From IMG/VR virus record IMGVR_UViG_3300035665_000004, positions 57,947 through 121,946 of that record: DNA of 64,000 nt; one strand, 5' to 3'. Source of the stretch: a virus. This document shows positions 11,820-62,926 of this stretch, in pieces (position 1 is the first letter of the stretch; every line of letters begins with the position of its first letter). Position numbers and translations under genes: made by a program. The notes under the pieces are model-generated. The model saw only the letters and a list, made by a program, of their open reading frames with translations, was not told the origin of the DNA and made no database searches.

Positions 11820-12863
11820 TTATTTTTTTGCCGGATTTTTAATCGGTTCAATAATTTCTTTAGCATACCAACCTATTTGAAATTCTGTAGAATTTCTTTC
11901 TAATTGTTTAAGAGTGTTTTCACTACAATTCACAAAAATTGGGCAACCGTTATTTTTGTATGATTCAGTTAATTTACGTCTTGAGAGTTTATGTTTTTTG
12001 CAGAAATCATCAAAATTTCCATATGACGTACCAAACAAAGTACCATCCACACGGTAAACTGAAATCTTTTTAGAATTAGGGGAAACGTAAAAATCATAAG
12101 CATCAAACTCACGTTTGGTCACTACCTTATTTTTTCCATCTCTAATATCCAAAACAGTTACTCTATCCTCAGATACATGTTTAAAAAATTCATTTTGTTC
12201 ATATTCCATCTTAGAAACTAACTTGTATTTTTCAGCAATAACATCAAAAACTAAAACACACCCCTTATTTTGTCGAACATAATAATCGAATTCGTAAAAT
12301 TCTTTAGTTGTTACCTGAACTGTGGTTCCATTTCTAATATCAATAACAGAAACTTTTCCAGTAGCCGCAGTAATATATTGATCCGACGAATTATATTCAT
12401 TAACACTTATACTTTTGATAACGTTGTCTTTGGTATCAAAAACAGTAACGAACCCTTTTGTACAATGTTGGTAAAAATCAGTATTTTTTAATTCCTCTTT
12501 CACCACCAACTTTGTTAACCCAGTTCTCACATCAATAACTGGAACTAATCCTACAGTAGTGAAACCATTACTAATTGATTTAACTTTGTTATAATATTCG
12601 GTGTTTCTTGAAACATCATACAATTCGTGTAATCTTATTTCTTCATTGAGTGCATATTCTCTTGTTTCCCAAACTGATAATATTTCTTTTTTAAAATTTT
12701 CAATTCCACCAAATTTAATTGCATTCTTTAAAGGTGTAGAAGACCCCATATATTTCACATCTTTTTCTGGAGAAACTTTTGATGTTCTAACACCTATATA
12801 ATATTTTTGGTTATCGATAGGGACAGTATTAATTATTTTGTAAACATAATGATATTGTTTCAA
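11820..12863 (-). CDS. GIY-YIG homing endonuclease with tandem DNA-binding modules
   Basis: 347 residues. The nuclease domain covers residues 1-95: HYVYKIIN (the GIY half), YYIGVRTS (the YIG half), KYMGSSTPLKNAIKFGG, and the catalytic Glu in ALNEEIRLHELYDV, as in Seg-type phage endonucleases. Residues 105-270 hold about five repeats of some 40 residues reading roughly VxVxDxRxGxxxxVxxxEFxxxDFY, which I take as DNA-binding modules. Residues 280-320 (DDFCKKHKLSRRKLTES) look like a helix-turn-helix. Translation appears to start at TTG behind GGGAG. The gene diverges from the split polymerase fragment, 90 bp away, as expected of an enzyme that targets or created that break. Confidence 0.85.
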   Translation of the reverse strand: MKQYHYVYKIINTVPIDNQKYYIGVRTSKVSPEKDVKYMGSSTPLKNAIKFGGIENFKKEILSVWETREYALNEEIRLHELYDVSRNTEYYNKVKSISNGFTTVGLVPVIDVRTGLTKLVVKEELKNTDFYQHCTKGFVTVFDTKDNVIKSISVNEYNSSDQYITAATGKVSVIDIRNGTTVQVTTKEFYEFDYYVRQNKGCVLVFDVIAEKYKLVSKMEYEQNEFFKHVSEDRVTVLDIRDGKNKVVTKREFDAYDFYVSPNSKKISVYRVDGTLFGTSYGNFDDFCKKHKLSRRKLTESYKNNGCPIFVNCSENTLKQLERNSTEFQIGWYAKEIIEPIKNPAKK

Positions 12864-12923: not shown

Positions 12924-12953
12924 ATAATATATTCTTATTAATTGGTAAAAAAT

Positions 12954-14099
12954 ATGTTGAAAAAAGTTAAAGTTAAATCGGTTAAAAAAATTGATTATTC
13001 TGGTAAAGTATATGATGTAGTTATGAAAAGTAACCCACATACATTTTTTGCAAATAATATTTTGGTACATAATTCCTGTTATTTCAGAGTAATGGAGGCA
13101 GAAAACTTAGAACAGGCAGAAAAAATAAGTAGAGAGGTAGTTGACGCCTGTGATAAAAAATCTATCCCATCAATAGTTACCAATATTTTTAATGGTAATG
13201 ACATTATGCGTAGTGATTTTGAAGCAATTTCTCGATCAACACTGTCGTATGGTAAGAAAAAACAATACGCATTTCTTAAAGCCTGGGAGGATGGAGAAAC
13301 CTTACCAACTCCAAAATTAAGCATCACTGGTTTATCAATTAAAAGAAGTGATTCACCAAAACAGTTATCTACTGAAATGAAACCATTCTTTACCGAAATT
13401 ATGAAAGGTTTAACAAAAGAACAGATAAAAATCGCAATGGATAAAATTGAAAAAGATTATGATGCTCTACCAACATATGAATTGGCAGCTAAACGTTCAG
13501 CGAATAACTTATCAAAATATTTAAGGGCATTTAACTATGAATTAGTTAAAAAGGATAGACCATACAACATCGAAAAATTAGATGAGGCAGTTGAAAACGC
13601 TTGTGATGGGCGAGTATCCATCGATGATAAAATTTATGATGATTTCATGAGAACAGGCAAAGGTGTTTATTCCATCGAAAATAATAAATTGGTTAAAGAT
13701 ATAAAAGGTGATTTAATCATAGAGGCAAAAGTTAAAATGGTTATTCCATTTCATATCAAAGCATCGATACTTTATAATTATTTGTTAGAATTATACGATT
13801 TAAATGATTTCAATCCAATTTTAGATGGTGAAAAAATAAAATTATTTTATATTCAACCACAAAAATTTAATATAAAATACACGGATCTAGATGGAAACAA
13901 ATATGATATGATACAAACTTTTGATTGTATTGCGTTCCCATCAAACTCAAAAAAAATACCAAATTTTATCAATACATTTACACCAGACAAAAAAAGAATG
14001 TTGGATACTTATTTCTTTGGTAAAATGGAAACAATTTTTGATGTTATCGATTTTAATAAAGAAAAATTAGAAAATATATCAATGGATTTATTGTTTTGA
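12954..14099 (+). CDS. 43: C-terminal part of family B DNA polymerase fused to a C-intein
   Basis: Residues 1-40 are a split-intein C-fragment: VYDVVM (block F), then FFANNILVHN ending in the catalytic Asn40. The next residue, Ser41, is the first extein residue, encoded at 13074-13076. From there the sequence is the C-terminal quarter of a T4 gp43-like polymerase: SCYFRVMEAEN follows what must be the DTD of catalytic motif C, then SYGKKKQYAFLKAW, PKLSITGLSIKRSDSPKQ (palm/thumb), ending SMDLLF like the T4 tail FDMFDF that binds the clamp. The catalytic aspartates and the N-intein must come from another gene outside this window. The ATG at 12954 is preferred to an in-frame TTG at 12942. Confidence 0.88.
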   Translation: MLKKVKVKSVKKIDYSGKVYDVVMKSNPHTFFANNILVHNSCYFRVMEAENLEQAEKISREVVDACDKKSIPSIVTNIFNGNDIMRSDFEAISRSTLSYGKKKQYAFLKAWEDGETLPTPKLSITGLSIKRSDSPKQLSTEMKPFFTEIMKGLTKEQIKIAMDKIEKDYDALPTYELAAKRSANNLSKYLRAFNYELVKKDRPYNIEKLDEAVENACDGRVSIDDKIYDDFMRTGKGVYSIENNKLVKDIKGDLIIEAKVKMVIPFHIKASILYNYLLELYDLNDFNPILDGEKIKLFYIQPQKFNIKYTDLDGNKYDMIQTFDCIAFPSNSKKIPNFINTFTPDKKRMLDTYFFGKMETIFDVIDFNKEKLENISMDLLF

Positions 14100-14169: not shown

Positions 14170-14177
14170 CATAAATA
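14170..14177 (+). promoter_or_regulatory. Late-type promoter (CATAAATA) before the hybrid kinase
   Basis: CATAAATA is one base from TATAAATA and lies 31 nt before the kinase ATG. A transcript from here would have a leader of only about 25 nt without a Shine-Dalgarno, so translation would be weak or use other signals. Confidence 0.5.
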
Positions 14178-14208: not shown

Positions 14209-16701
14209 ATGCCCACTAATATAAAAATTGATACCCTGACTATTGATATTTTGAATCATCTCAATATAATTGTGACCGACGCTAATAATAATATAACCTT
14301 TATTAGTGACAACTATTTAAATGCGTTGGAATATACTATCGATGAGGTTATTGGAAAAAATCCTATAATTTTTAGACATCCAACAATTAATAATCTACCA
14401 ATATTAAATTTTGTAAATAAAAATGGTGGACATTGGAACGGATTATTAAAAAATATTACAAAAAGTGGAAAAACTATATATTTCAATGCCGATATTTACA
14501 AAGATTATGATGAAAATGGTAATCATATTGGGTATCATTCAATACATACTGACATAACTACAACTATAACAAACCCCCATAAATTTATTTTTGATAATGA
14601 ACTTTTATCAATTATATTTTCAGAAAATATAGAATACCTAATCATCTGTTTGAGTGACGAGTTCGATGAAAATAAACACGAAATTATCAAGATTAGTCAC
14701 CCATTACTAGAATTGATAGGTATTGAAGCCGATAAATTAGTTGAGCAACACGCAAGTTTTGTAGATTTAATATCACCAAAGTCAATTTATTACAAAAATT
14801 TAAAACTGTTAATGCATGATCTTAACAATGAAAACCCATTACCGGTTGATATAAAAACGAAAAATAGGGATGCAAAATACAGAGTTTCATACACCCCTTT
14901 CAAATTCAATGATAAAGCAGCTCAATTATTTACGATGATTGACATAACCACCGAAATATCTTTTTCCGATCAACTCCAAAGTATAATAAAATCAAAAAAT
15001 GAATTTTTGGCAAATTTAGCCCACGAAATTAAAACTCCATTGAATGCAATTAATGGTTTTATTTCACTACTACAAATGCGTGAAACAAATAAAGAAAAAC
15101 TAGACTATATTGAATTAGTGTTGGAAAGTGTTAAACATGTAATAAACATTTCCAACGATACCATCGATTTTATTGGTATGGATAATAGTAAAATAGAGAT
15201 AAATCCTAGAGAATTTACACCAAAAGATATTCAGTCAACCATAGAAATATTTTTTGCAAAGAGTTTAGAAAAAAACATTGAATTGACTGCATATATTTCA
15301 CCACAATTACCAGAAATAATGTTTCAAGATATTTTGCGATTAAAACAAATCATAACCAATCTTATCAGTAATGCATTAAAATTCGTTAATGTTGATGGTA
15401 GAGGAACTATAGTGATAGAATGTCATTTCAACAATGACAAATTTTATTTTACTATTGTCGATAATGGAATTGGAATGTCCACAGAACAAATAGAAAATAT
15501 ATTTAATCCTTTTTATCAGGCATCAAAAGATACAAAAATGGTTTATGGTGGTACAGGGTTAGGATTGGCTGTTGTTAATCAAATAATTGAACTTATGGGT
15601 GGTAGTATTACTGTAGAAAGTGAACTCGGTGTAGGTTCAACATTTTCAGTTATTATACCAGTAAAATCAGTTAAAGAGTTTCAACATACAATTGGTCGAA
15701 TGGATATACCAAACATTTACATTTATGCCCCATCATTTTCCAATACAAAACATGAAATTTTAAAGAAATATCTGTTCGATTTTACAACCGCAAAGATCAA
15801 TAAAGTTGCAGAAATTGATACATTGAATTCAATAACGGATAGTGTGATACTACTTTATGTATGTGATACAGATATAAAAACTATACTCCAATTAAGTAAA
15901 ACAAATAGAATTATTGTAGTTAAAAAAATGGACATGGTTATCAACAATTTTACAAATTCGTCCGAAATAATAGAAATAAATTTACCCATTTTAGGATCAA
16001 AAATATATGATGCACTAAATTTACTAATATCCGGTAGAATGGAACAATTCTATAAAAATAACTTCTTAGATATGACAATATCTGGTAGAATATTGGTGGC
16101 AGATGATCAAGAATCGAATAGACTACTAATAAATCGATTATTATCATGTTATGATGTAACGATTGATGTAGTATGTGATGGTAGAGAGGCAGTTAATTAT
16201 TTTAAAAAGAGTATAATAGAAAACAAATCGTATTACGACTTAATATTGCTTGACGTCAACATGCCAATATTAAACGGCGTTGATGCCGCGAGAGAAATAA
16301 GACTTTTCGAAAAAATGAATAATATTACTAGAACTACAATAATATCATTAACAGCGGATAGATATACGGACAAAAATGATAGTAGATTGGTAGATATGGA
16401 TGAATATATACCCAAACCTATTAATTTAAAACGGATGTTATATCTAATTGTGAAATACACAACTGATCTAAAATTGGTTGATGAAAACTTGTTATACGAT
16501 GAAAAAATTAAAAAATTGAAAGAGATACGTGACGAATTTTTAAAACCAAATAATGAATTTAAAACAATGATAGACAATTATAAAAAACATTTTGATGGTT
16601 CGGAATTACCAATTATTGAAGGTTTAAAAGATTTAACTAATAAAAATGAATTCACTGCAAACTATAATAAAATTATGAAAATTTTTAGGAAGCACGGATG
16701 A
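14209..16701 (+). CDS. Soluble PAS hybrid histidine kinase with C-terminal receiver
   Basis: 830 residues and no membrane segment. Residues 10-125 form a PAS domain (TDANNNITFISDNYLNALEYT...EVIGKNP); residues 125-255 are a second, weaker PAS-like region. HisKA: His272 in FLANLAHEIKTPLNAINGF. HATPase: N box LKQIITNLISNALKF, G1 VDNGIGM, F box FNPFYQAS, G2 GGTGLGLAVV, all intact. Residues 495-620 are a degenerate receiver-like linker. The true receiver (625-760) has RILVADDQ, phospho-acceptor Asp682 in LILLDVNMP, the Thr/Ser site ISLTADR and Lys in YIPKPI. The about 80-residue helical tail lacks an HPt histidine motif. It should autophosphorylate and pass phosphate to its own receiver, then to a separate HPt such as that at 19457. 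Such a kinase is exceptional in a phage. Confidence 0.92.
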   Translation: MPTNIKIDTLTIDILNHLNIIVTDANNNITFISDNYLNALEYTIDEVIGKNPIIFRHPTINNLPILNFVNKNGGHWNGLLKNITKSGKTIYFNADIYKDYDENGNHIGYHSIHTDITTTITNPHKFIFDNELLSIIFSENIEYLIICLSDEFDENKHEIIKISHPLLELIGIEADKLVEQHASFVDLISPKSIYYKNLKLLMHDLNNENPLPVDIKTKNRDAKYRVSYTPFKFNDKAAQLFTMIDITTEISFSDQLQSIIKSKNEFLANLAHEIKTPLNAINGFISLLQMRETNKEKLDYIELVLESVKHVINISNDTIDFIGMDNSKIEINPREFTPKDIQSTIEIFFAKSLEKNIELTAYISPQLPEIMFQDILRLKQIITNLISNALKFVNVDGRGTIVIECHFNNDKFYFTIVDNGIGMSTEQIENIFNPFYQASKDTKMVYGGTGLGLAVVNQIIELMGGSITVESELGVGSTFSVIIPVKSVKEFQHTIGRMDIPNIYIYAPSFSNTKHEILKKYLFDFTTAKINKVAEIDTLNSITDSVILLYVCDTDIKTILQLSKTNRIIVVKKMDMVINNFTNSSEIIEINLPILGSKIYDALNLLISGRMEQFYKNNFLDMTISGRILVADDQESNRLLINRLLSCYDVTIDVVCDGREAVNYFKKSIIENKSYYDLILLDVNMPILNGVDAAREIRLFEKMNNITRTTIISLTADRYTDKNDSRLVDMDEYIPKPINLKRMLYLIVKYTTDLKLVDENLLYDEKIKKLKEIRDEFLKPNNEFKTMIDNYKKHFDGSELPIIEGLKDLTNKNEFTANYNKIMKIFRKHG

Positions 16702-16705
16702 CGAA

Positions 16706-16713
16706 TATAAATA
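16706..16713 (+). promoter_or_regulatory. T4-type late promoter (perfect TATAAATA)
   Basis: A perfect TATAAATA starts 4 nt after the hybrid-kinase stop and 28 nt before the holin-like ATG, with AAGGGGG as ribosome site between. It would drive the holin-like, coiled-coil, receiver and membrane-kinase genes as a late operon. Confidence 0.7.
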
Positions 16714-16733
16714 TCATAAAAAGGGGGTTATAG

Positions 16734-17123
16734 ATGCATATTTTGCTTGATTTAGATGTTTCACTATATATACTATTATTTTTTATCGCAGGTACGATAG
16801 GATTAGTAGTGCGTATAGATCAATGGGTCGAAGGAGATTTTTCACATCCAATCAAAGAAAACGGTACATTAGATATCCTCAGATCGTTTTGGTCGTATGT
16901 ATTAACATTCTTATTATCGGGATTATCGGGAGCAATTGTATCGATAGGGACAGGTTATATTTTAGAAAATAAGGATACAAACATAATGATCTTCACTGCT
17001 GTAATGATTGGTGCAATTGGAAAACTCATTTTTTATAAACTTGTGGAATGGGTACATTTTAAAGTTGATGATGTGTTGACACCTAAAAAAAATAATAACC
17101 AAGCACATAGAAGAGGGAAATGA
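16734..17123 (+). CDS. Three-TM holin-like membrane protein
   Basis: 129 residues with three hydrophobic segments at about 8-27 (SLYILLFFIAGTIGLVV), 52-77 (YVLTFLLSGLSGAIVSIGTG) and 82-104 (NIMIFTAVMIGAIGKLIFY), and a short, strongly basic tail (KKNNNQAHRRGK). Size, topology and charged C-terminus match class I holins, and the glycine-rich TM2/TM3 recall LydA-type holins. It has a strong ribosome site (AAGGGGG) and a perfect late promoter. Its stop overlaps the next start by 4 nt. The only endolysin in the window is 40 kb away. The holin call is by topology and context; an unrelated channel or kinase partner is possible. Confidence 0.6.
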   Translation: MHILLDLDVSLYILLFFIAGTIGLVVRIDQWVEGDFSHPIKENGTLDILRSFWSYVLTFLLSGLSGAIVSIGTGYILENKDTNIMIFTAVMIGAIGKLIFYKLVEWVHFKVDDVLTPKKNNNQAHRRGK

Positions 17124-17521
17124 TTATGGTTAACGATTTAATTGATTCTGTTGATTTAAATACTTCTGATGAGTGGAACCAAAAAAAAAGTGTTAACCTT
17201 ATTCGCCACACAGAAACTATCGATAAACTTGTTGTCCAAAATAAAACATTACAAAGAGAATTGCGTGAACTTTCAATACACGCGGAACAATTACAAAATA
17301 AATTATATGACAGCAATGTTAGAATTTCTAAAAATTTATTTTATATTGGATTATTTGCACTCGCTTATTTTGTTTACAGTGTAAATAGCAACCTAATAAT
17401 GTTAAACGATAAGTTAATTGAGATAAATGTTGTAGTTGCACAATACAAAGATATAACTGAAAAAAATAAGTTATACAATCAAATTATGACAGAACAAAAT
17501 GGTATTAATAAAACCAAATAA
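17120..17521 (+). CDS. Single-TM coiled-coil membrane protein
   Basis: 133 residues. Residues 25-70 are a charged heptad-like coiled coil (IDKLVVQNKTLQRELREL...HAEQLQNKLYDSN), residues 71-90 a transmembrane segment (NLFYIGLFALAYFVYSV), and the rest a short second helical tail. It overlaps the holin-like gene (ATGA) and precedes the receiver gene by 24 nt. A spanin, an antiholin or an adaptor joining the relay to the membrane are all compatible. It is not a standard inner-membrane spanin, in which the TM segment comes first. Confidence 0.6.
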   Translation: MIMVNDLIDSVDLNTSDEWNQKKSVNLIRHTETIDKLVVQNKTLQRELRELSIHAEQLQNKLYDSNVRISKNLFYIGLFALAYFVYSVNSNLIMLNDKLIEINVVVAQYKDITEKNKLYNQIMTEQNGINKTK

Positions 17522-17545
17522 TAATAGGGGAAAAGGGAGATAAAA

Positions 17546-18163
17546 ATGCTTAGTAATTTATTTGGTAAAAAAATTCGTAAAGTGGATTATCACAACACTA
17601 ATAAATCTGAAACACACAACTTCACAAATATGCAGGATCAAATCACATGGTTGACAGATAATGGTTGGGTAAATGGAAATACTTTCAATAAAAGTAACAA
17701 AAATATCCTGATAATGGATGACAGACAAGATATAATTTCCGCAGTCATTGATGATTTAGAAAGAATGGACGAAACTGAAATAATAAATCTAAATCATTTT
17801 AACCTGATAACTGTTTCATCAAAAAATGCAGGTTTTCACGTATTGGATATTTTAGAAAAAGCACCAAATATAACCATAGATTATGCACTATTAGATATTG
17901 TATTAGGTGGAAAAAAAATAGTAGATGGTGTAAAACAAATGGTAGATGGTGTTGATGTTGCAATACAAATATGGGAACGGTTTTCAACAGCACAGATACT
18001 TTTTTTTAGTGGTTGTATCATTGAAAATTCTAACGACCGTGATGATTTTAAAAACAGATTTACTAGTTATACACAAGAAGATATATCGGATTATTTGTTG
18101 CCAAAGGACATTGATTTTGATTCCGAAATCGATCAACTAGCAACATTTTTCAACGGTTTTTAA
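17546..18163 (+). CDS. Stand-alone receiver (response regulator without output domain)
   Basis: 205 residues. After an N-terminal extension of about 52 residues comes a receiver fold: NILIMDDRQDI (Asp58-Asp59), phospho-acceptor Asp117 in YALLDIVLGG, the Ser switch in ILFFSGC, and Lys in YLLPKDIDF. All catalytic positions are present. After Asp117 a short duplication (KIVDGVK / QMVDGVD) lengthens the beta3-alpha3 loop, where normal receivers have DxxMPxMDG. There is no DNA-binding or enzymatic output domain, so the output must be by protein contact. The ribosome site is strong (AAGGGAG) and the membrane kinase follows by 8 nt. Confidence 0.85.
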   Translation: MLSNLFGKKIRKVDYHNTNKSETHNFTNMQDQITWLTDNGWVNGNTFNKSNKNILIMDDRQDIISAVIDDLERMDETEIINLNHFNLITVSSKNAGFHVLDILEKAPNITIDYALLDIVLGGKKIVDGVKQMVDGVDVAIQIWERFSTAQILFFSGCIIENSNDRDDFKNRFTSYTQEDISDYLLPKDIDFDSEIDQLATFFNGF

Positions 18164-18171
18164 AATTATTT

Positions 18172-19455
18172 ATGGCTATCGATTTTAAAAATATAGCTAT
18201 TAGTAGTTTAACAATAACTGGGGTAACATTTGCGTCTGTGCTTTGCATAACAATTACTGTAAATTTATATACCACATTTACAATATCAAATGAATTCGAA
18301 CCATCAATAAATTTATTAGCTAGAAATTATATCAATTCAAAAAACTCACCAACATTATTGACGGATAATTTTACCGATTCTCAAATAAATGTAGTTATAT
18401 TTGATGAAGAAAAAAACAAAATATTTAAACTTAATAATAATTCTTTAATTGACATTAGTGATTCATCACCATTTCCAAAATTAATTAGTGTACCATTTGA
18501 TGTTTATATTTCTTCTATGACAACGTTTGAAATGTCCACACTTGCAACTATGTATAATGTAGACAATTTAAAAATAAAACTAGATATATATGATAAGAAG
18601 CATATAGCCGCCGATACATTTATAATGTTACTAATAACTAACAGTCTTATTTCTCATATTTTATATTTTAAATTAGTTGCTAGAAATAAACTGATATTGA
18701 AATCACTGATTAAAGTTGAACAATACGAATACGCTCTTTCACAAAGAACAACAGCAGATTTGGTAAGTATAACACATCATAAATTGAATACGCCCCTAAA
18801 GGTTTTAAATACAAAATCCAGAATGTTGATTGATATAATAAAATCACAGGATAACATTTCACAAAAAACATTAGATAAGGCTTTGTTGGATTATCATAGT
18901 ATTGAATCTTCATTAACCACAATTTCTGAGGTTACTGATACATTAAAATCATTTAATGATTTGAGTAAACATGAATTGAATTTATATAAATTGTTTAACG
19001 TTGCGAAAGAAACTACCAATGTATTGAATGATGATGAATTTGAAATTATATTAGATGAAAAAACTAAATTGTTCAATATTGATAAATCATATATAAATTC
19101 ACATGAAATGATTCAAATTTTTATAAATCAAATAAATTTTTCATTGTCAATGTTAGCAGATAAAATTCATATAAAAGTATTTAATACCTCAAATAATGTT
19201 ATGATATTATTATATTCTGATAATGGGAATATAATTACCGATGATATGATCGATGATCTAAATACCAATAATGAAATATTTGTAAATGCAGATACCAACC
19301 ATAAAAAAAATACACATTATGATTTAACTTTAAACTTTATTATTTTAAATTCGAAAGATTTTTCAAATATAAAAATTCTCTCATCTAATAGAAATGGAAA
19401 CATATTTGAGATTAAACTACCTGTTGTTCGAGCAGATGAAACAAAAAAATTTTAA
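18172..19455 (+). CDS. Membrane histidine kinase-like sensor with degenerate ATPase domain
   Basis: 427 residues. TM1 is at 8-32, followed by a periplasmic domain of about 115 residues and TM2 at 148-170, the usual sensor-kinase topology. The dimerisation/phosphotransfer helix has His203 in SITHHKLNTPLKVLN, keeping the H..L.TPL core. In the catalytic domain the N box (MIQIFINQINFSLSML) lacks the usual N-L-x-x-N-A pattern, G1 is reduced to LYSDNGN, and G2 is not recognisable. It may therefore be a phosphatase or phospho-acceptor rather than an active kinase, or depend on the hybrid kinase. It starts 8 nt after the receiver with almost no ribosome site, implying coupled translation, and ends 1 nt before the convergent HPt gene. 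Confidence 0.78.
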   Translation: MAIDFKNIAISSLTITGVTFASVLCITITVNLYTTFTISNEFEPSINLLARNYINSKNSPTLLTDNFTDSQINVVIFDEEKNKIFKLNNNSLIDISDSSPFPKLISVPFDVYISSMTTFEMSTLATMYNVDNLKIKLDIYDKKHIAADTFIMLLITNSLISHILYFKLVARNKLILKSLIKVEQYEYALSQRTTADLVSITHHKLNTPLKVLNTKSRMLIDIIKSQDNISQKTLDKALLDYHSIESSLTTISEVTDTLKSFNDLSKHELNLYKLFNVAKETTNVLNDDEFEIILDEKTKLFNIDKSYINSHEMIQIFINQINFSLSMLADKIHIKVFNTSNNVMILLYSDNGNIITDDMIDDLNTNNEIFVNADTNHKKNTHYDLTLNFIILNSKDFSNIKILSSNRNGNIFEIKLPVVRADETKKF

Positions 19456-19456
19456 A

Positions 19457-19801
19457 TCATTGGTTTTTTAAACTATCCATAAGATCATCAAACATAGGTC
19501 TTATTTCATGTAATGGTGTGCCTTTTCGAAGTTCTAACTCCATATCTTGACAAAGATCACTTTCATAATAAAAATCACCATACAATAGTAGATTTTTTAC
19601 TGAGTGTAACTTAGTAGAAACAGCCGATATATTGTTAATATCATCATTGAATAACATAGTATTGATTTCCAACAAAGTCTCTTCAATATTGTCTACCATT
19701 AAAGTTGCTTTTATACTAACCTCATCACCATTTAGAGTTTCACATAAAAAATCATATATAGCATCGTAAAATTTAATTCTATCAATTGATGAGTTCATCA
19801 T
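19457..19801 (-). CDS. Stand-alone HPt phosphotransfer protein
   Basis: About 114 residues, all helical. Helices 2-3 carry TKLHSVKNLLLYGDF (His66), matching the HPt signature A-H-x-L-K-G-x-x-x-x-(I/L)-G, followed by DLCQDMELELRKG, matching the C-x-x-(L/M)-E-x-x-x-R-x-G helix of HPt proteins. The glycine after Lys is replaced by Asn-Leu, a modest deviation. GGGGGAA before ATGATG sets the start; an upstream in-frame TTG is unlikely. It is transcribed toward the membrane kinase from the other strand. It supplies the step missing from the hybrid kinase, so the likely flow is kinase His272, Asp682, HPt His66, receiver Asp117. Confidence 0.75.
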   Translation of the reverse strand: MMNSSIDRIKFYDAIYDFLCETLNGDEVSIKATLMVDNIEETLLEINTMLFNDDINNISAVSTKLHSVKNLLLYGDFYYESDLCQDMELELRKGTPLHEIRPMFDDLMDSLKNQ

Positions 19802-19864: not shown

Positions 19865-21073
19865 TCAAATGAATGAATTGTGGGTTGATATATAACCAAC
19901 CAAAAACTCAAAAGAATTTTTATCAGGTTGTTTATACACCATATCTAAACATAAATTCAATAATAAGCCGACATCTTTACCACTAAAACCCATATTAATC
20001 AAATCGACACCATTAACTTTTAAATCTTTTATCATAATTGGACAGTTGGAATTTTTAATTATATTTAACAACTCTATATGGTTATTTATTGCGTTACCAT
20101 GAAAATATCGATGAAATTCCAAAATAATCTCTGTCAACTCAAAATCTTTTGAAACATTACTTAATACTTTTTTAATTTCAAAAGGAGTAATATCCTCGAT
20201 AGAATCTAAAAATTTTAATTGACTAACTATCTTTCTAAATGATATAGGTAATTTAAATTCTGGACACCAACCATTATGATATACCAAAGGTATTAAACTA
20301 TTAGTGTTTATCATATCGGTCAAAATAATATTCGACATTTGTTTATTATGATTTATAAAATCAAAATCCATAACATCACACAGTGAGTTTATAATGAAGG
20401 TTTTATCATCTGAGGTCAACTCAGGCAATGAAAAAATATTATTCAATTCACTATACACCCGTTCAAGTGACAATTTAGAAACATCAAACACTGTTTTTGC
20501 GTCAATCACTGTTTTTTCATCAAAACATAACCCCAACTTTAGTTTAAATCGCACAAACCTTAAAAACCTAAGATTATCTTCTCTGATTCTATCAATAGTA
20601 TTTCCAACAAATCGTAATTTCTTATTATTAATATCATCTAGCCCACCCATAACATCGACAAATTCGTTAGTAAGTGGATTAAACGCCATCGCATTTATAG
20701 TAAAATCTCTGCGAATTAAATCACCAGTTATAGAATCAGAAAATTCTATAGTTGCTCGTCTACCATCGGATGAAACATCATTTCTATACCTGGTTATTTC
20801 ATAATTTTCTCCATTCAAGTGAATGGTCAAGGTTCCATGATCTTCCCCAGTGCAGATAACATGATCAAACAATGTTTTAGTTATTTCTAATGGGCAATTT
20901 GTAGTAAAATCAATATCTTTGGGTTTTAAACCAAATAACAAATCTCTTACTGGTCCACCAACAATCCAGCATTCATATCCCAGGTGTAAATATTTTTCGA
21001 TGATGAACACTATATCATCACGCATATTTTGTGCTATATTATCATTAAATGACTTTTGTAAATTATGATGCAT
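19865..21073 (-). CDS. cca: CCA-adding tRNA nucleotidyltransferase
   Basis: 402 residues. The class II nucleotidyltransferase head is clear: CWIVGGPVRDLLFG, the metal-binding DIDFTTN, then YEITRYRND, RRDFTINAMAFNP, DVMGGLDDI and the nucleotide-recognition segment EDNLRFLRFVRF. The C-terminal about 200 helical residues are the tRNA-binding body, more diverged. The enzyme adds or repairs the 3' CCA of tRNAs without a template. No tRNA gene is visible in this window, so it presumably serves phage tRNAs elsewhere or repairs host tRNAs during infection. It is adjacent to the HPt gene on the same strand. Confidence 0.92.
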   Translation of the reverse strand: MHHNLQKSFNDNIAQNMRDDIVFIIEKYLHLGYECWIVGGPVRDLLFGLKPKDIDFTTNCPLEITKTLFDHVICTGEDHGTLTIHLNGENYEITRYRNDVSSDGRRATIEFSDSITGDLIRRDFTINAMAFNPLTNEFVDVMGGLDDINNKKLRFVGNTIDRIREDNLRFLRFVRFKLKLGLCFDEKTVIDAKTVFDVSKLSLERVYSELNNIFSLPELTSDDKTFIINSLCDVMDFDFINHNKQMSNIILTDMINTNSLIPLVYHNGWCPEFKLPISFRKIVSQLKFLDSIEDITPFEIKKVLSNVSKDFELTEIILEFHRYFHGNAINNHIELLNIIKNSNCPIMIKDLKVNGVDLINMGFSGKDVGLLLNLCLDMVYKQPDKNSFEFLVGYISTHNSFI

Positions 21074-30327: not shown

Positions 30328-31962
30328 TTAATTACCAGATACACTTGATGGTCTAGCACTTCTTGTTTGTGCCAATGATCCAAAGAATGTAGAATTGCCT
30401 GGGGTTGAAATAGTAATATATTCCATAGTAGTATTCCATAATGAACCAACTAATACCCCACGAATGCCATTTGATACACCTGCACCATCATAAGCGTTTC
30501 CAGTTAATTTACCAAATTGTTGTGCGTTACTTGTAGTAGCAATTGTAAAATATTCGATGTTATTCCAACCAGCTCTTGAATAACCACCCATAATAACACC
30601 TTTAATCGCATCAGTTACAGGTACACCATGTGCACCATAGTTGTATGTACATGAACCAAAATAAGTTGAATTACCTAATGTTTGGATAGTGATGTACTCT
30701 AATACTGAATCCCAACCATTTCTGGAATATCCACCAAAAACTCCTCTAGTACCAGATGAAACAGCAGTACCCCAATACCCTTGTGCAACAGAACCAAATT
30801 TTGATGCGTTTCCTGGGGTTTCAATTGTAACATAGTTAGATATATTATGGTGGCCGGATGGTCCTGTACTTGTCGCATTATATGCTGGACCAATAACACC
30901 TCTAGTGCCATCGGATACACAAGATGAACCATAGTTTTCATAACCAATAGTACCAAAATTTGTCGCATTACCAGGGGTTGCAATAGTTACATAATCCATT
31001 TTACCATTATTTGCAGTATTATACCCCATCCAACCACCTTGGAATACACCACGCACACCATTTGACATACCACAACCCATATGCGACCTACCATAAGTTA
31101 AATTGCCAAAATTTGATGAATTGGATGTTGTTGGGATACTAATTTTATCAATAGATGCAGATGAATAACCACTTGATGGAGTATAACCCCCTGCAATCAA
31201 ACCAGTATTACCTAAGAATGAGAATTTATTACCACCGATAACCGCAGAATTTTGTTTATCATCCGCTAATTTTCTGAATGTCGAATTGTTTTTCCCAAAT
31301 GTACCAGTTGATTTTTTAATAATTGCTTCACCCGTTTCTTGATGTAAAATAATAGCACCAAGTGGAAATTTTGAAACATCTGTTTCATCAGATGCAACCG
31401 CATACACAAAATTATGAGGTTTGAATGTCAACCCCTTAGATTCATCACCTAATCTAATACCATCCTCTTGTAAATAGATGTTTCTAAATCTATTATTTTC
31501 ACCACCCAATGAAACTGTATCAGTTGTACTTGGTAACATTGGTTGTTGAATTTGTACAGCACCGTTAACATTTATTTCACCTGTAACATTACCGCCAGTT
31601 TTAGATAATTTACCAGTAGTATCAATACCAGCCAAAGTATATTCTCTGATTCCATCAAGAGTTTTACCACTTAATGTGGTTGAATTTGACAACCATGCAG
31701 TATCAGTTTTATAATTTATTTTATCATTTGCTGAATCATACCATACTTGACCGGCTACTTTTCCTGCATCAGTCGAAGCTTTTGGTGGTGCTACATCACC
31801 TGAAAAATTTTCTAACAATTTAACAAAATTGTTATTAATTACAAGCATGTAATCTTCGACACTTTCACCAATTAAAGCAGTATCGAATGTTGAGTTGATG
31901 GTTTTATCACCAACAGTTACAATATTCTGTCCCGCAGTATTCGTTACTGTAATATTAGCCAT
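30328..31962 (-). CDS. Tail fibre with propeller-like repeats (copy 3)
   Basis: 544 residues and the first gene of the triple fibre operon. Attachment domain: LIGESVEDYMLVINNNFVKL, then AGQVWYDSANDKINYK. Middle: TVSLGGENNRFRNIYLQ and KPHNFVYAVASDETD. From residue 240 there are about six repeats of the GGYSRxGWxxxEYITIxTxGNSxxFG type. A late-type promoter (32010-32017) lies 48 nt upstream, and AAGGAG precedes the ATG. Sequence differences between the three fibres are concentrated in the repeats, consistent with different receptors. Confidence 0.8.
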   Translation of the reverse strand: MANITVTNTAGQNIVTVGDKTINSTFDTALIGESVEDYMLVINNNFVKLLENFSGDVAPPKASTDAGKVAGQVWYDSANDKINYKTDTAWLSNSTTLSGKTLDGIREYTLAGIDTTGKLSKTGGNVTGEINVNGAVQIQQPMLPSTTDTVSLGGENNRFRNIYLQEDGIRLGDESKGLTFKPHNFVYAVASDETDVSKFPLGAIILHQETGEAIIKKSTGTFGKNNSTFRKLADDKQNSAVIGGNKFSFLGNTGLIAGGYTPSSGYSSASIDKISIPTTSNSSNFGNLTYGRSHMGCGMSNGVRGVFQGGWMGYNTANNGKMDYVTIATPGNATNFGTIGYENYGSSCVSDGTRGVIGPAYNATSTGPSGHHNISNYVTIETPGNASKFGSVAQGYWGTAVSSGTRGVFGGYSRNGWDSVLEYITIQTLGNSTYFGSCTYNYGAHGVPVTDAIKGVIMGGYSRAGWNNIEYFTIATTSNAQQFGKLTGNAYDGAGVSNGIRGVLVGSLWNTTMEYITISTPGNSTFFGSLAQTRSARPSSVSGN

Positions 31963-32009
31963 ATTAAATTTCTCCTTAGATTTTCAGATATATTTATTTC
32001 ATTTTTATT

Positions 32010-32017
32010 TATTTATA
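32010..32017 (-). promoter_or_regulatory. T4-type late promoter (TATAAATA)
   Basis: A perfect TATAAATA on the - strand, 48 nt before the first triple-fibre gene. It lies in the 109-bp divergent gap with the RNase H gene. Confidence 0.7.
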
Positions 32018-32071
32018 ATGGTTGAGTTAATTATTGTAAAATTACATCATCTTAAATAAAAAAGGAAAAAA

Positions 32072-33211
32072 ATGAAAAATTTACTTATTGATTTTGCAAA
32101 TTTAACAGCCATCACTAGATTTGGTATAATGTCAAAAAATGCATCGACTCTACTAATGGAGGATGAAGAATGGGAAAATTACTTTTTAGATGCAATGTTA
32201 GTTTCACTCGCAAATTATATAAATGTTTTGAAAGCAGACAGAGTTATTTTAACAGGTGAAAGTAAATCATGGAGAAAAACATTTTATCCACTATACAAAG
32301 CGAATCGTGATGCAAACAAAGAAGCCGATGAAAAACTAGATTTATTTTATAACGCTGTGAATAAAGCAACTGCGTTTATGGAAGATTTTACCAACGCAAA
32401 AGTTATTAGAACCAGTGGTGCTGAAGGTGATGATATTATTGCAGTATTAACTCAAAAATTTTCAGCGGAAGGTGAAAAAACCGTAATCGTTTCGACCGAT
32501 GGAGATTTTAAACAGTTGCTGCGATTCAAAGGGGTTAGAATTTTTCACCCCATAAAAAAAGCCTATATTACTGAATACTCACATTTAGAATATATCACTA
32601 AAATAATTAAAGGTGATGCAGGTGACAATGTACCAACAACTTATCCAAGAATAAAACCTGAAGTGTTGGAGTCAATCGCATTAGATGAAAAGCATTTGGA
32701 ACATCATTTCGATATTGTTGATAAAACTATTGGCCGTCAAAAATTCTTCATTGCGAAATTTTTAGAAATTGATGAGATTCCATCAGATTTAACAACCGAT
32801 GAATGGGAAGAAGTTATATCGATTGCAAAAGAAAAGAAAACAAAATTGCTCAATGCAATCACACTAGCAAAAAATGATGATACTTATAAAACAAATACTG
32901 AGTTACAAAGAAAAGAAAAACGATTGAAAGATATTATTAAAATGGCTAAAAAAGAAAACATTACGGAACCTAGATTATTTAGTATAATAAATTCATTTAG
33001 AGATGGTTTTCACAGAAACAAAAAATTAATATGTTTGCATATTGACAATATACCTGAACATATTACCAATAATATACTTGATGAATACAACCGAGATCAT
33101 AGTGCGTCAAAACAGTCAGAATTTCTAAAATTTGTTAGAAATCACAAATTAAAAGAATTTGCTTTTGGTTCAGAATGGAATACTTTAAAGGCAATACAAA
33201 AAAATATTTAG
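32072..33211 (+). CDS. rnh: T4-type RNase H / 5'-3' FEN-family nuclease
   Basis: 379 residues. Metal-binding motifs of the FEN/T4 RNase H family are in order: LLIDFAN near the start, the arch region SWRKTFYPLYKANRDANK, GAEGDDIIAVL, STDGDFKQLL and KGDAGDNVP. The helical C-terminal domain (residues 240-379) is diverged. The enzyme removes RNA primers and adjacent DNA from Okazaki fragments behind the phage replication fork. It is a + strand gene in a - strand structural region and diverges from the fibre operon. An AAAAAGG ribosome site precedes the ATG. Confidence 0.9.
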   Translation: MKNLLIDFANLTAITRFGIMSKNASTLLMEDEEWENYFLDAMLVSLANYINVLKADRVILTGESKSWRKTFYPLYKANRDANKEADEKLDLFYNAVNKATAFMEDFTNAKVIRTSGAEGDDIIAVLTQKFSAEGEKTVIVSTDGDFKQLLRFKGVRIFHPIKKAYITEYSHLEYITKIIKGDAGDNVPTTYPRIKPEVLESIALDEKHLEHHFDIVDKTIGRQKFFIAKFLEIDEIPSDLTTDEWEEVISIAKEKKTKLLNAITLAKNDDTYKTNTELQRKEKRLKDIIKMAKKENITEPRLFSIINSFRDGFHRNKKLICLHIDNIPEHITNNILDEYNRDHSASKQSEFLKFVRNHKLKEFAFGSEWNTLKAIQKNI

Positions 33212-33222
33212 GAATATTAATC

Positions 33223-34161
33223 ATGGTAACACCATTTAAAAACAAATTTGTAGTTAATTTTCACCACGCAGATTTTGATGGTGCAATAAGTGGTAGTTGC
33301 GTTAGTGCTGCTTTAGGTATCGACAACGTCATCAGTAAAGCATACAGCATTGCAAAAGTTGGCAATGCTGTCAACAATATTATAGGTGATACCGATTTGG
33401 TATTATTAACCGATATTAGCGTATATAAAGATGATTTATTGAAATTAGTGCCCTATATGAAAAAAAATAAACTTATCATATATGACCACCACATAAACGA
33501 ACATTCTAAAGAAACATTTTCAAAGTTTGAAACCGATACACACAGTATCCTTGATCCAGACTTATGTGGTTCGACTATAACTTGGTATAAATTGAGTGAA
33601 TATTACCCACACAATAGTAAATTACAAGATTTGGAACAAATAGTATATCTTAGTGATGTTTATGATATGTGGAGAACTAACAACCCAGATTTTGAATATG
33701 CCTCAACACTTAATGATTTACTAGATTATAAGATAGGTTATAACCCCGATACCTTCAGAGAAAGATTTTTGAAAAACCCGGATCCCTATAATTTATCATT
33801 CGATGAAAAAATGATCATAGAAAGAAAAAAACTTAAACATTATAGTAATTTGAAAATTATGGAAAAAAACGCTATAATTTTTGATTATAAAAAACATGTT
33901 TTTGTTATGGTAGAAGCAAATGCTACGGATTATACAAAAATGCATTTTATGAATTTGATACTTGAAACTGAAAATGTAGATATGTTTATTTTTAAATATA
34001 CTGGAACAACACAATGTTCAATAAGAATACCCAATAAACAGTCGAAAATTAAAGATTTAAATGATTGGTATGAAGATTTTGGTTGTATTGGTCATGAAAA
34101 AGCCGGAGGAATATCAGTGAATGAATTCCCCCGGTTAAAAAAAGTTTTAGAAAATATCTAA
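33223..34161 (+). CDS. DHH-family phosphoesterase (NrnA/RecJ-like)
   Basis: About 312 residues from the ATG at 33223, chosen because AGGA precedes it; an earlier frame start lies inside the RNase H gene. DHH motifs: VNFHHADFDGA (metal-binding D-x-D), LLTDIS, IYDHHINEH (the DHH motif) and YLSDVYDMW. The C-terminal DHHA1-like end is C-I-GHEKAGGISV, the usual substrate-binding GG loop. Such enzymes degrade short oligoribonucleotides, pAp or cyclic dinucleotides. It follows the RNase H by 11 nt, suggesting joint turnover of primer fragments; destruction of a host cyclic-nucleotide signal is an alternative. Confidence 0.82.
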   Translation: MVTPFKNKFVVNFHHADFDGAISGSCVSAALGIDNVISKAYSIAKVGNAVNNIIGDTDLVLLTDISVYKDDLLKLVPYMKKNKLIIYDHHINEHSKETFSKFETDTHSILDPDLCGSTITWYKLSEYYPHNSKLQDLEQIVYLSDVYDMWRTNNPDFEYASTLNDLLDYKIGYNPDTFRERFLKNPDPYNLSFDEKMIIERKKLKHYSNLKIMEKNAIIFDYKKHVFVMVEANATDYTKMHFMNLILETENVDMFIFKYTGTTQCSIRIPNKQSKIKDLNDWYEDFGCIGHEKAGGISVNEFPRLKKVLENI

Positions 34162-34163
34162 AA

Positions 34164-34388
34164 TTATTTTGATTTCAATAACACTACAGATGCTTCAATA
34201 GCAAGATTCAACATATGTGAAGCATAATCTTCACTAATGCTTTTTGCTGCATCTAACACTTTTTCTCTTTTTTCTGAACCACTAAGAGTTTCATCAGTTG
34301 CAACTGTAGCAACCAACGATTGTATTTTACTGAATACGTCATGTCCAATTATATAACGCATTGTTTGTATCAAAAACCACTGCCACAT
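34164..34388 (-). CDS. Small unrecognised protein behind the giant structural gene
   Basis: 74 residues from the ATG at 34388, which has AAAGGAG 8 nt upstream; the longer frame runs through a hairpin and is unlikely. It starts with a hydrophobic aromatic helix (MWQWFLIQTMRYIIG), then two charged helices (SGSEKREKVLDAAKSI, SHMLNLAIEASVVLL). One short hydrophobic N-terminus could be membrane-peripheral. It is convergent with the DHH gene with only 2 nt between stops. Function unknown. Confidence 0.55.
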   Translation of the reverse strand: MWQWFLIQTMRYIIGHDVFSKIQSLVATVATDETLSGSEKREKVLDAAKSISEDYASHMLNLAIEASVVLLKSK

Positions 34389-34415
34389 ATTATTTTCTCC
34401 TTTATATTGAAAATT

Positions 34416-34445
34416 ATCCCTGTGAAAATATAACTTCACAGGGAT
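34416..34445 (-). terminator. Hairpin between the giant gene and the small gene
   Basis: An 11-bp perfect stem, ATCCCTGTGAA at 34416-34426 against 34435-34445, with an 8-nt loop, starts 7 nt past the giant gene's stop; AATTTTC follows on the - strand. It could be a partial terminator that lowers expression of the small gene. Confidence 0.65.
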
Positions 34446-34452
34446 TTAAAAA

Positions 34453-37400
34453 CTACATAGTTTTTGTTGCCTGAGCACCTAAGATAGCTGTAAGTTGTGT
34501 AACGAGCATAGTTTTAAAATTAACTTTACTATACGCATTAGTTGCAACCGCTTCAACTATTGGTGCACCAGCAGCAGTAGTATAAACCGTAGATTTTTTA
34601 GTTACTAATTCCTGCATCCACTTATCGATTTCAAATGAAGTAACTGTATCTAAACCAGCTAAATAGTTAATACCATCTTTAAACATCGCATCGATTTGTG
34701 TTTTAGTATAATACGTAGGTGTTGTCATACTAATAGAAACATTAAGTCTTGACACCCATTTATTAATATCCGCCGAACTTATTGGATCGATACCATTTGA
34801 CAATTTTAAACCAGCTTTAACAATTTCAAATGCTTCTTCTTTGTTATAAGCACCATTTGTACTAGGTATTGGTCTGAATTCATCCGCTCTTGCTATCGCA
34901 TTACCAGTAGTCATATCGGGTTGTACTGTATATCCCAACGCAGAGAATTTACCTGGATTCACAACATCTTTATTATCAATCCAGTTTTCTAAAGATGTAT
35001 GGAATGCTCCAAGTTCTGTATCATTGATAGCAGTTCCTTTTGTCAAAATATGATCTCTGATTTTACTTAAACCACTAATCAATATCAATTTAGTTTCAAG
35101 TTTAGTGAAATAACCGGTTGCATCACCTTTAATGCTAGATGTTAATGATTTCAATTTTGCTGCCCAATTATCTAAACGCATTTTAGTAATTTCTACAGCA
35201 TTATCCATATTAGATGTAGTCATATACTTAATGTTAGCTTTATAATCGGTTGGGTTCCAACCTAATTGAACATAATGTCCACCATCACTTTCAGAATAAG
35301 CCAAGTCAATTCTATACCAACCAGATACTGCAAAATCATATGAATACGCAGTATCTCTACAGCAATATTTATTTCTAGCAATAATCTCTTTATTGATAAA
35401 CACTGCATGTGGATCATCACCATTCAATTTAACATTGTCAATTTTAAATGGTGTACTAACAAAAATCCATGTGGTATAAATCGCATGGTAATTATGTACG
35501 TTACCCCAAACAGTTGGTCCAGCAATAAATCCAGAGTTGAATTCATTACCCAACACATCAGTGTATGTTTTTGTTAATGAGTTGGTTTTAACATTTTTAG
35601 TTGCAACCGGTGTTCTACCATTTTCTAAGAAATCTTGAACTAATTCAAGGTTTTTAGAACCTAAGAAACCAGCGTATCTAACACCTAACCACTCCCAATT
35701 AGTAACATTATCAGTTCCAACTGGAGGCAATACTCTAGCAGACGATGCTAAAATAAACCCTTCGTAAATCAACTCCAATGTTTCCGCTCTTGAATAGAAC
35801 TCGGCACTAACATCAACACCTAAATTTTTAACAGATAATCTCTTAATCCAACGATCTAATTCAGTTGCAGATAACATAGTTTTACCTGTAACTGTTTTTA
35901 ATACAGTAACTAAGAATTTCATGAATTCCAACTTAGTATATGGTCCTTCCATGTTTTCAACAAACGCAGTAATCATATCAGAGATATATACTTTATTTGG
36001 TCTTTGAAGAACTGCACCTGAAGTATCTTTCAACCCATAACCATTACCAGTTGATGATCTCCAACTATCAAATGCATCATTATCCATATCACCAACGATA
36101 CCATCAATAGTATCAATCAACAAATTTTTACTAATATCTTTAGTAAATACATTTGCAGATAAATCTGCTAAATGGGTATTTGTTGTTTCTAATCCCAATG
36201 TTAATACTGCATCTTGTGCATTCATATCTTTTCTAATTGCTGCCTCAGTTGTAGCAATATGTTTGTACAATAAATTTGCAGTAGTATTGATATAATTAGT
36301 AGTTTGATCGAATTTAATATGTGTTTCTTCAGTTAAATCAACCAATTTTTTATAATTTTTATCAACCGCCAGTTCAAGATCTTCAATTCTTTTTCTTTGA
36401 TCATTTGCATCAATTCTTAAATCGATAATATCCCTAGTGTTGATTTCATCATATAATAACCCATCTGGTCTATAAGTAGTTTTTGATACCATAGAACCAC
36501 CAGCTTTATAATCAATTGAGAATAACCAACGCAACATAACTTTGAATTTGGCTTTTCTATCTCTACCAACAGATGAAGTTTCCAATGTCGCATGACGTTC
36601 ATCAACTAAAGTAAACCCTGTAATGTCATCTGCAAAATTAGGTTTATCTTCAGATACATAGATACCATTAATAAAGAATCCAGTACCATTATCATTGAAT
36701 TCTGGGTGGTAAACACCTTGGTTTCTTCTATTAATAATTGCAACTGGAATAGCATGAACATAACCATTATATGATAAAGGTGTTTTTTCCTCAACTGTAA
36801 ATAATGAATCATCATACAATTTACCTTCTTTATATAATAAAGAATTATGGCTAGATGCAATAATTAGATTACCACCCGCAAAAATTTGAGCAGTTTCTAA
36901 AATAGGTTGACCAGCTTTACCTACACCATCAGCAGTTGTATATGTACCAATTTCTCTGGTTACTATTCTTGATGTAACGGGCGATTTACCTTGGAATCTC
37001 AACCCTTGAGACATGTAATCAGATGTACCTTTGAAATAGTTATTAAATAAGTTAAGAGCAACAACTCTTGTTCTATATCTAACTTGAATTAATGTTTCCC
37101 CACTATAATATAAATTATGGTCGGCATTTCTAAAGATTGTAGTTCTTTCAACATCAGATAACGCAGATAATTTCCAGCCTTTACCCACCGTCGTATCTTC
37201 TACAAATGTACTATTGATATATTTTATCTCATCTGCATCAGCCGCTTCAAATGATGTGCCACCATAATAGTTATATACGATGTCACCTTTTTGGAACATT
37301 TGACAGTATTTCTTAGCACCACCATCAATTACTGTAGATTCGCCAGAAACAGTATCATAAAATACGTGGTCAAATACAGTTGTTGGTACGCCATCAGCAG

Positions 37401-62393: not shown

Positions 62394-62593
62394 CTCTTTA
62401 TTCCTTGTTTCAAAATTATAATTTTACACAATAGTTTTAAAGTTCACTGAATAGAATCATAGAAATTTAAATAACTGGGGTGTTAACCAAAACAAACCAC
62501 ATCTTTAATTAAAATATAACTATCGCAAACACAACAAAAACATATCCTACAAATATGATACTAAATTTTTTTATATTTTAAAAAACGAATGTG

Positions 62594-62621
62594 AAAAAAG
62601 GAATCAAATGATTCCTTTTTT
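62594..62621. terminator. Terminator between clpS and clpA
   Basis: A 12-bp stem AAAAAAGGAATC (62594-62605) against GATTCCTTTTTT (62610-62621) with a 4-nt loop, directly after the clpS stop. The long gap to clpA (236 bp) has no other gene. Confidence 0.85.
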
Positions 62622-62629
62622 TCATATTT

Positions 62630-62926
62630 TCAAATTTTCTTCATGATAGTTCTTAGTGGTTGTTTATTTGCTTTTGCGAATTCCGATGCAGCGTAAACTT
62701 TTGATTCGGCTATTTCCTTGGTATAGATACCACATAAACCCTCTCCACCAGAATGTACACTAGCAGTAATATCATTTGCTTCTAATTCTGATTTATTAAA
62801 AATCGTAATCAATGTCATTACTACAAATTGCCAGGTACTATAATCATCATTCAATATAAAAACCGCATATTTACTCGGTCTTTTAATCTTAGTTTTTTCT
62901 TCTACTTCAGGCAATGAAACACTCAA
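62630..62926 (-). CDS. clpS: ClpS adaptor
   Basis: 98 residues with the full ClpS signature: YAVFILNDDYSTWQFVVMTL, then VHSGGEGLCGIYTKEIAESKV and the C-terminal helix. ClpS delivers proteins with N-degron residues to ClpA. Asn-Asp-Asp and the His of VHSGG, which contact the N-terminal residue, are retained. Translation starts at TTG behind GAGGAG, since there is no in-frame ATG upstream. With clpA and clpP in the same window this would give a complete N-degron pathway under phage control. Confidence 0.93.
   Translation of the reverse strand: MSVSLPEVEEKTKIKRPSKYAVFILNDDYSTWQFVVMTLITIFNKSELEANDITASVHSGGEGLCGIYTKEIAESKVYAASEFAKANKQPLRTIMKKI

What the first reader, a model, noticed from the sequence alone, without database searches (positions are those of the whole stretch)
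14209..19801. A complete phage-encoded phosphorelay wrapped around holin-like membrane genes
Seen: an intact PAS hybrid kinase (His272, Asp682), a three-TM holin-like protein, a coiled-coil TM protein, a stand-alone receiver (Asp117), a membrane kinase-like protein (His203) and a stand-alone HPt (His66), packed in 5.6 kb. A perfect T4-type late promoter drives the middle operon. Known: His-Asp-His-Asp relays need exactly these parts, and phages rarely carry any histidine kinase. Inference: the phage reads a cytoplasmic signal (PAS) and an envelope signal (periplasmic domain) and sends phosphate to a receiver that acts by protein contact, possibly on the adjacent membrane proteins, to time or delay lysis, like a signalling-based lysis inhibition. 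An alternative is interference with host two-component circuits.
Basis: partly seen in the sequence, partly recalled or inferred. Interest (0 to 1): 0.94.

Follow-up and report, generated by a model that had tools for sequence, protein, structure and literature searches.

The report
Phage carrying its own phosphorelay genes
A large T4-like virus of bacteria carries, in one swappable block, genes that look like a full bacterial signalling relay (sensor kinase, phosphate carrier and receiver) plus membrane proteins, apparently switched on late in infection; what the relay controls is unknown, and the proposed link to the timing of cell bursting has no direct support.

Summary
Window 14209-19801 lies in a 122-kb T4-like phage contig. 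It encodes an intact soluble PAS hybrid histidine kinase (His272, Asp682, all ATP boxes), a divergent stand-alone receiver (D58/D59, D117, S155, K187), a BarA-type HPt, and two small membrane proteins. The "membrane kinase" keeps a histidine-kinase fold and His203, but its H-box Glu is Lys, G1 is partial and G2 is lost: it is most likely a pseudokinase. T4-type late boxes precede all three transcription units; in a syntenic 290-kb relative such boxes are about tenfold enriched upstream of genes. That relative lacks the whole cassette. Between the same flanks it carries a flagellin and other cargo, with a CheY-like receiver just beyond, so this is a variable cargo island, not a contaminant or simple assembly join. 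"Holin-like" rests on topology only: no holin family matches, and the phage's GH19 endolysin lies 40 kb away. Most likely this is a late-expressed phage phosphorelay whose receiver acts by protein contact; rewiring of host responses is the main rival. Phosphate flow is inferred, not shown. New variant of a known kind: phage histidine kinases are known, but I found no report of one with HPt, receiver and pseudokinase.

The parts
14170..14177 (+). CATAAATA, putative T4-type late promoter box 32 nt upstream of the kinase
   Evidence: CATAAATA is upstream of starts in 5 of 12 cases in this phage against 0.46 expected; in the relative G001 this variant is not clearly enriched (3 of 41 against 1.3)
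14209..16701 (+). soluble PAS-HisKA-HATPase-REC hybrid histidine kinase, 830 aa, His272 and Asp682, catalytic boxes intact, no TM segment
16706..16713 (+). TATAAATA, T4-type late promoter box 21 nt upstream of the middle operon
16734..17123 (+). 129-aa three-TM membrane protein of unknown family (holin-like by topology only)
17120..17521 (+). 133-aa protein: N-terminal Glu/Lys-rich, probably coiled-coil part, one TM (76-95), short C-terminal tail; unknown family
   Evidence: coiled coil judged by eye
17546..18163 (+). 205-aa divergent stand-alone receiver, D58/D59, D117, S155, K187, no output domain recognised
   Evidence: hhalign 36.2 against shuffles at most 23.6; only plasmid tblastn hits, both weak, are response regulators
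18172..19455 (+). 427-aa membrane protein with two TM segments, ~108-aa loop, DHp plus degenerate ATPase domain: probable pseudo-histidine-kinase; His203 kept, H-box Glu replaced by Lys204, G2 box lost
19457..19801 (-). stand-alone BarA-type HPt (His66 counted from the ATG at 19801)
   Evidence: against:
12942..14099 (+). left flank: DNA polymerase C-terminal part with intein C-half, syntenic with G001 (75% identical)
19865..21073 (-). right flank: tRNA nucleotidyltransferase, syntenic with G001 (40% identical)

Best explanation
A phage-encoded multistep phosphorelay carried in a variable cargo island and expressed late. The soluble PAS hybrid kinase senses a cytoplasmic state (energy, redox or ligand), autophosphorylates His272 and passes the phosphate to its own Asp682 (inferred from intact motifs). 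The separate HPt takes it from Asp682 (inferred) and hands it to the stand-alone receiver Asp117 (inferred). The receiver has no DNA-binding part, so it acts by protein contact. The co-operonic membrane pseudokinase, whose DHp helices are the usual docking surface for receivers, probably binds this receiver and tunes or localises it at the membrane rather than phosphorylating it from ATP. The target is a membrane-proximal process in the infected cell, either the two co-operonic membrane proteins or a host machine. Shown: parts, motifs, gene order, phage context, promoter statistics. Inferred: phosphate flow, pairing, target.
For: Intact catalytic motifs of the kinase. The kinase ends after REC without a recognised HPt, and an HPt of the same BarA type lies in the cassette. 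Receiver and pseudokinase genes are adjacent in one operon, 8 nt apart, and both exceed shuffle controls. Late-type boxes precede all three transcription units, while the upstream tRNA nucleotidyltransferase lacks one. Each ORF is intact and codon usage is near that of the phage (0.969; 5th percentile of control groups 0.978). Other T4-like records carry an HK-REC hybrid plus a separate receiver about 1 kb away. The relative carries a CheY-like receiver close to the same place.
Against: No phosphotransfer data. The HPt is below detection by PF01627 and by a small HPt profile. The receiver is below detection by PF00072. The kinase and HPt are not in one operon. No second phage with this cassette was found, so co-conservation cannot be tested.
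Confidence: 0.45

Rival explanations
1. Host rewiring: the kinase and HPt feed phosphate into, or drain it from, host response regulators (motility, envelope or Csr/Gac-like circuits), while the phage receiver and pseudokinase act as decoys or phosphate sinks.
For: Between the same flanks the relative carries a flagellin, and a CheY-like receiver (closest PDB match the 3gwg CheY homolog, E=2.6e-36) lies just beyond the right-hand flank gene, i.e. host-behaviour cargo. The kinase and HPt resemble the host-type BarA relay. Phage proteins that act on host two-component systems exist (PIT4, PMC10714779); phiCDHM1 carries an HK without its own regulator (PMC3901668).
Against: The phage supplies its own stand-alone receiver, co-expressed with membrane proteins. 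Host unknown. Late-type promoters are late for reprogramming a host.
Confidence: 0.3
2. Signalling-based lysis timing: the receiver or pseudokinase controls the three-TM and coiled-coil TM proteins acting as holin and antiholin.
For: The two membrane genes share the late-type operon with receiver and pseudokinase; three-TM topology.
Against: No match to holin, antiholin or spanin families. The GH19 endolysin and SLT transglycosylase lie about 40 kb away beside another two-TM protein. A 290-kb relative does without the cassette.
Confidence: 0.1
3. Passing cargo: host-derived genes caught in a recombination hot spot, diverging without a selected phage role.
For: The island differs completely in the relative; GIY-YIG-type endonuclease genes lie next to it in both phages.
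Against: All six ORFs intact, codon usage close to the phage's, phage-type late boxes upstream, catalytic motifs kept.
Confidence: 0.1
4. Contaminant or chimeric assembly.
For: Only one contig carries it.
Against: Both flanks are syntenic with an independent 290-kb phage contig; composition and codon usage match the phage.
Confidence: 0.03

Closest known systems
BarA/GacS/LetS-type unorthodox kinase relay (HK-REC-HPt to UvrY/GacA)
   Same: HK-REC order; best NCBIfam match of the kinase (2.8e-69) and only NCBIfam match of the HPt are both BarA
   Different: Soluble, PAS sensor, no TM segment; HPt on a separate gene and strand; receiver without DNA-binding output
Rcs and CckA-ChpT-type relays
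   Same: separate phosphotransfer protein; a degenerate DHp-CA protein takes part (RcsD, ChpT; own knowledge)
   Different: Here an HPt and a membrane pseudokinase coexist in a phage; no RcsB or CtrA-like DNA-binding regulator
Phage-encoded histidine kinases (phiCDHM1 AgrC, PMC3901668; PHROG 20458, 857)
   Same: histidine kinase in a phage genome
   Different: phiCDHM1 has no response regulator or HPt; no relay reported in what I searched
cREC divergent receivers of jumbo phages (PMC7824862, PMC9503650)
   Same: divergent stand-alone receiver in a large phage
   Different: cREC is described as never found with histidine kinases and sits with NAD/RNA-repair genes; PF20274 gives no match here
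T4 lysis inhibition (holin T, antiholin RI)
   Same: late-expressed membrane proteins in a T4-like phage (analogy only)
   Different: T4 uses direct antiholin-holin contact (PMC11413866), no phosphorelay; no family match here

Membership tests
hybrid histidine kinase | HisKA H-box His, N/G1/G2 boxes, REC with phospho-Asp | tested here: met
BarA/GacS-type unorthodox kinase | TM/HAMP sensor and fused C-terminal HPt | tested here: not met
   no TM segment; HPt on a separate gene; below the NCBIfam BarA cut-off 890 bits
HPt phosphotransfer protein | PF01627 match | tested here: not met
   none at E<=10
HPt phosphotransfer protein | helical domain with phospho-His aligned to a solved HPt | tested here: met
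   3myf E=1e-4, His aligned to His; BarA HPt segment 9e-4; generic small-profile test inconclusive
receiver domain | acid pocket DD, phospho-Asp, Ser/Thr in strand 4, Lys in strand 5 | tested here: met
   D58/D59, D117, S155, K187
receiver domain | PF00072 match | tested here: not met
   supported only by profile alignment with controls
response regulator with DNA-binding output | output domain | tested here: not met
   no domain found
active membrane sensor histidine kinase (18172-19455) | HE/HD dyad in the H-box and ATP-lid G boxes | tested here: not met
   HK in place of HE, G1 partial, G2 lost
pseudokinase of the DHp-CA fold (ChpT/DivL-like) | DHp-CA fold with degenerate ATP site | tested here: met
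   hhalign 48.2 against shuffles at most 27.3; above the topoisomerase ATPase 37.3
cREC | PF20274 match and NAD/RNA-repair context | tested here: not met
   context
holin | match to a holin family | tested here: not met
holin | timed membrane permeabilisation | not testable with these tools
   needs expression assay
T4-type late transcription | TATAAATA placed upstream of late genes | tested here: met
   42 of 127 against 4.1 expected in G001; 6 of 17 against 0.65 here

The most novel reading that the evidence does not exclude
A virus encodes a complete, self-contained His-Asp-His-Asp phosphorelay, with a pseudokinase regulator, that reads the state of the infected cell and controls a late membrane process such as lysis through protein contact rather than transcription.
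Probability: 0.12. Interest if true: 0.92.

Novelty: new variant of a known kind. Interest (0 to 1): 0.62.

Why it matters
Phages are known to sense their surroundings through repressors, peptides and quorum receptors. A phage-owned multistep phosphorelay would be a different decision device, rapid and reversible, and could be tested in vitro with four purified proteins. The finding that the same genomic slot holds a flagellin (with a CheY-like receiver close by) in a relative and a phosphorelay here points to an island in which large T4-like phages exchange host-behaviour and signalling genes.

Tried and rejected
Single-sequence AlphaFold of the receiver and membrane protein gave mean pLDDT 35 and 32, so no fold search was run. 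Single-protein scans for relatives of receiver, pseudokinase, DNA polymerase part, tRNA nucleotidyltransferase, kinase, HPt and three-TM protein in viral contigs found nothing; the relative was found only through the topoisomerase. The kinase scan of bacterial genomes gave only distant generic kinases, so neither source nor host could be named. Pfam cREC, LydA-type holin and PF01627 gave no match. A small HPt profile was inconclusive. sigma-70-like promoters in the region are not above chance. Literature searches found no report of a phage phosphorelay, within the open-access library only.

Full report
WHAT IS THERE. The window is bases 57947-121946 of a linear 121,946-bp viral record of a T4-like phage. 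It encodes topoisomerase II, a T4-type clamp loader, split DNA polymerase, ClpA/ClpS and tail genes, judged by homology and sequence. The six ORFs are at the stated positions. The kinase (14209-16701) has PAS, HisKA, HATPase_c and Response_reg domains, all above the Pfam cut-offs, with His272, NLISNA, DNGIG, GTGLGL and Asp682 and no TM segment. Its best full-architecture match is BarA (2.8e-69 over 261-759).

THE WEAK MEMBERS. The receiver and the membrane kinase-like protein match nothing convincing in Pfam, PHROGs, NCBIfam or PDB sequences. I therefore built profiles from 78 receiver and 69 histidine-kinase segments taken from fetched loci and used shuffled and same-window controls. The receiver aligns from residue 53 with hhalign score 36.2, against at most 23.6 in 250 shuffles and 23.4 in the best unrelated window ORF. 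The membrane protein aligns over 195-417 with score 48.2, against at most 27.3, above the phage topoisomerase ATPase (37.3), a true relative. Independent tblastn hits agree: two weak plasmid hits of the receiver are response regulators, and annotated plasmid hits of the membrane protein are PAS sensor proteins. The receiver keeps the acid pocket, phospho-Asp, Ser and Lys. The membrane protein keeps His203 but has Lys in place of the H-box Glu, only part of G1, and no G2. I read it as a pseudokinase.

THE HPt. It matches the HPt domain 3myf (E=1e-4) with His on His, and BarA's HPt segment (9e-4). It fails PF01627 and a five-sequence HPt profile. I call it probable. The kinase lacks a recognised HPt of its own, so the separate HPt supplies the missing relay step.

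PROMOTERS. TATAAATA is not more frequent than chance in the window, but its placement is not random: 6 of 17 copies in the whole contig and 42 of 127 in the relative lie within 60 nt upstream of a gene, against 0.65 and 4.1 expected; permuted 8-mers are upstream in 12% and 8%. Late-type boxes stand before the middle operon (TATAAATA, exact), the kinase (CATAAATA) and the HPt (TATAAGTG, variant); none before the tRNA nucleotidyltransferase. The CATAAATA variant is enriched here (5 of 12 against 0.46) but not clearly in the relative.

CONTEXT. The closest relative, G001 (289,880 bp; topoisomerase 72% identical), is syntenic with the window over much of its length, but every cassette gene is missing from it. 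Between the same flanks, DNA polymerase C-part and tRNA nucleotidyltransferase, G001 has DnaJ-like, flagellin and NMN-adenylyltransferase-like genes; a GIY-YIG-type nuclease and a CheY-like receiver lie just beyond the tRNA nucleotidyltransferase (names of DnaJ, nucleotidyltransferase and nuclease read from sequence by eye). The receiver is closest to the CheY homolog 3gwg (2.6e-36) and the gene at 28322 is a flagellin. I recall 3gwg as Helicobacter CheY, which would hint at a Campylobacterota host for G001 (inference). The cassette is thus cargo in a variable island. Contamination or chimerism is unlikely.

RARITY. Of 37 topoisomerase-bearing viral records, 3 carry a true histidine kinase. 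Two of them, from one sample, carry a PAS-HK-REC hybrid with a separate 124-aa receiver about 1 kb away. PHROGs hold several HK-containing families. Phage kinases are uncommon but recurrent.

LYSIS. The two membrane proteins are holin-like by topology only. The recognisable lysis enzymes are a GH19 endolysin with a peptidoglycan-binding domain (contig 31346-32212) and an SLT transglycosylase (33920-34516), beside a two-TM protein (34498-34821), about 40 kb from the cassette. Lysis control remains possible, without positive evidence.

MECHANISM. Best supported: a late-expressed phage phosphorelay, kinase His272 to Asp682 to HPt to receiver Asp117, the receiver acting by protein contact and the membrane pseudokinase tuning or anchoring it. 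Every transfer step is inferred from motifs. The main rival is rewiring of host regulators, suggested by the host-behaviour cargo of the relative. The cREC explanation for the receiver was tested and not met (PMC7824862, PMC9503650).

NOVELTY. Phage histidine kinases are known (phiCDHM1 AgrC, no response regulator, PMC3901668). I found no report of a phage carrying hybrid kinase, HPt, receiver and pseudokinase together, within an open-access library. Hence a new variant of a known kind.

Noticed in passing
G001, locus L102: 8322-9125 and 13590-13964: A 290-kb T4-like phage record carries an apparently complete flagellin gene and a CheY-like chemotaxis receiver, flagellin in the same variable island and CheY just beyond it. 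Unusual phage cargo, worth its own study.
   Followed up: partly
contig 42937-43752 and window 12942-14099: DNA polymerase is split into two genes about 27 kb apart; the N-part ends in what looks like an intein N-half after DTDSV and the C-part begins with an intein C-half ending in HN followed by SCYFR. Probable trans-splicing; same split in G001.
   Followed up: partly
window 55924-57561: Topoisomerase II large subunit ends in what looks like an intein N-half just after SEGD; the matching C-half was not found in this contig.
   Followed up: partly
window 11820-12863: GIY-YIG-type homing endonuclease (by eye) next to the split polymerase and the cargo island; another near the island in G001.
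   Followed up: no
window 60084-62926: Phage-encoded ClpA-like and ClpS-like genes side by side, also in G001.
   Followed up: no
L117 7146-10245 and L118 6840-10012: Two related T4-like records carry a PAS-HK-REC hybrid kinase and a separate 124-aa receiver about 1 kb downstream: an independent phage two-component set.
   Followed up: partly
window 16440-16701: The kinase tail beyond REC (residues about 745-830) looks helical and might be a decayed HPt remnant.
   Followed up: no
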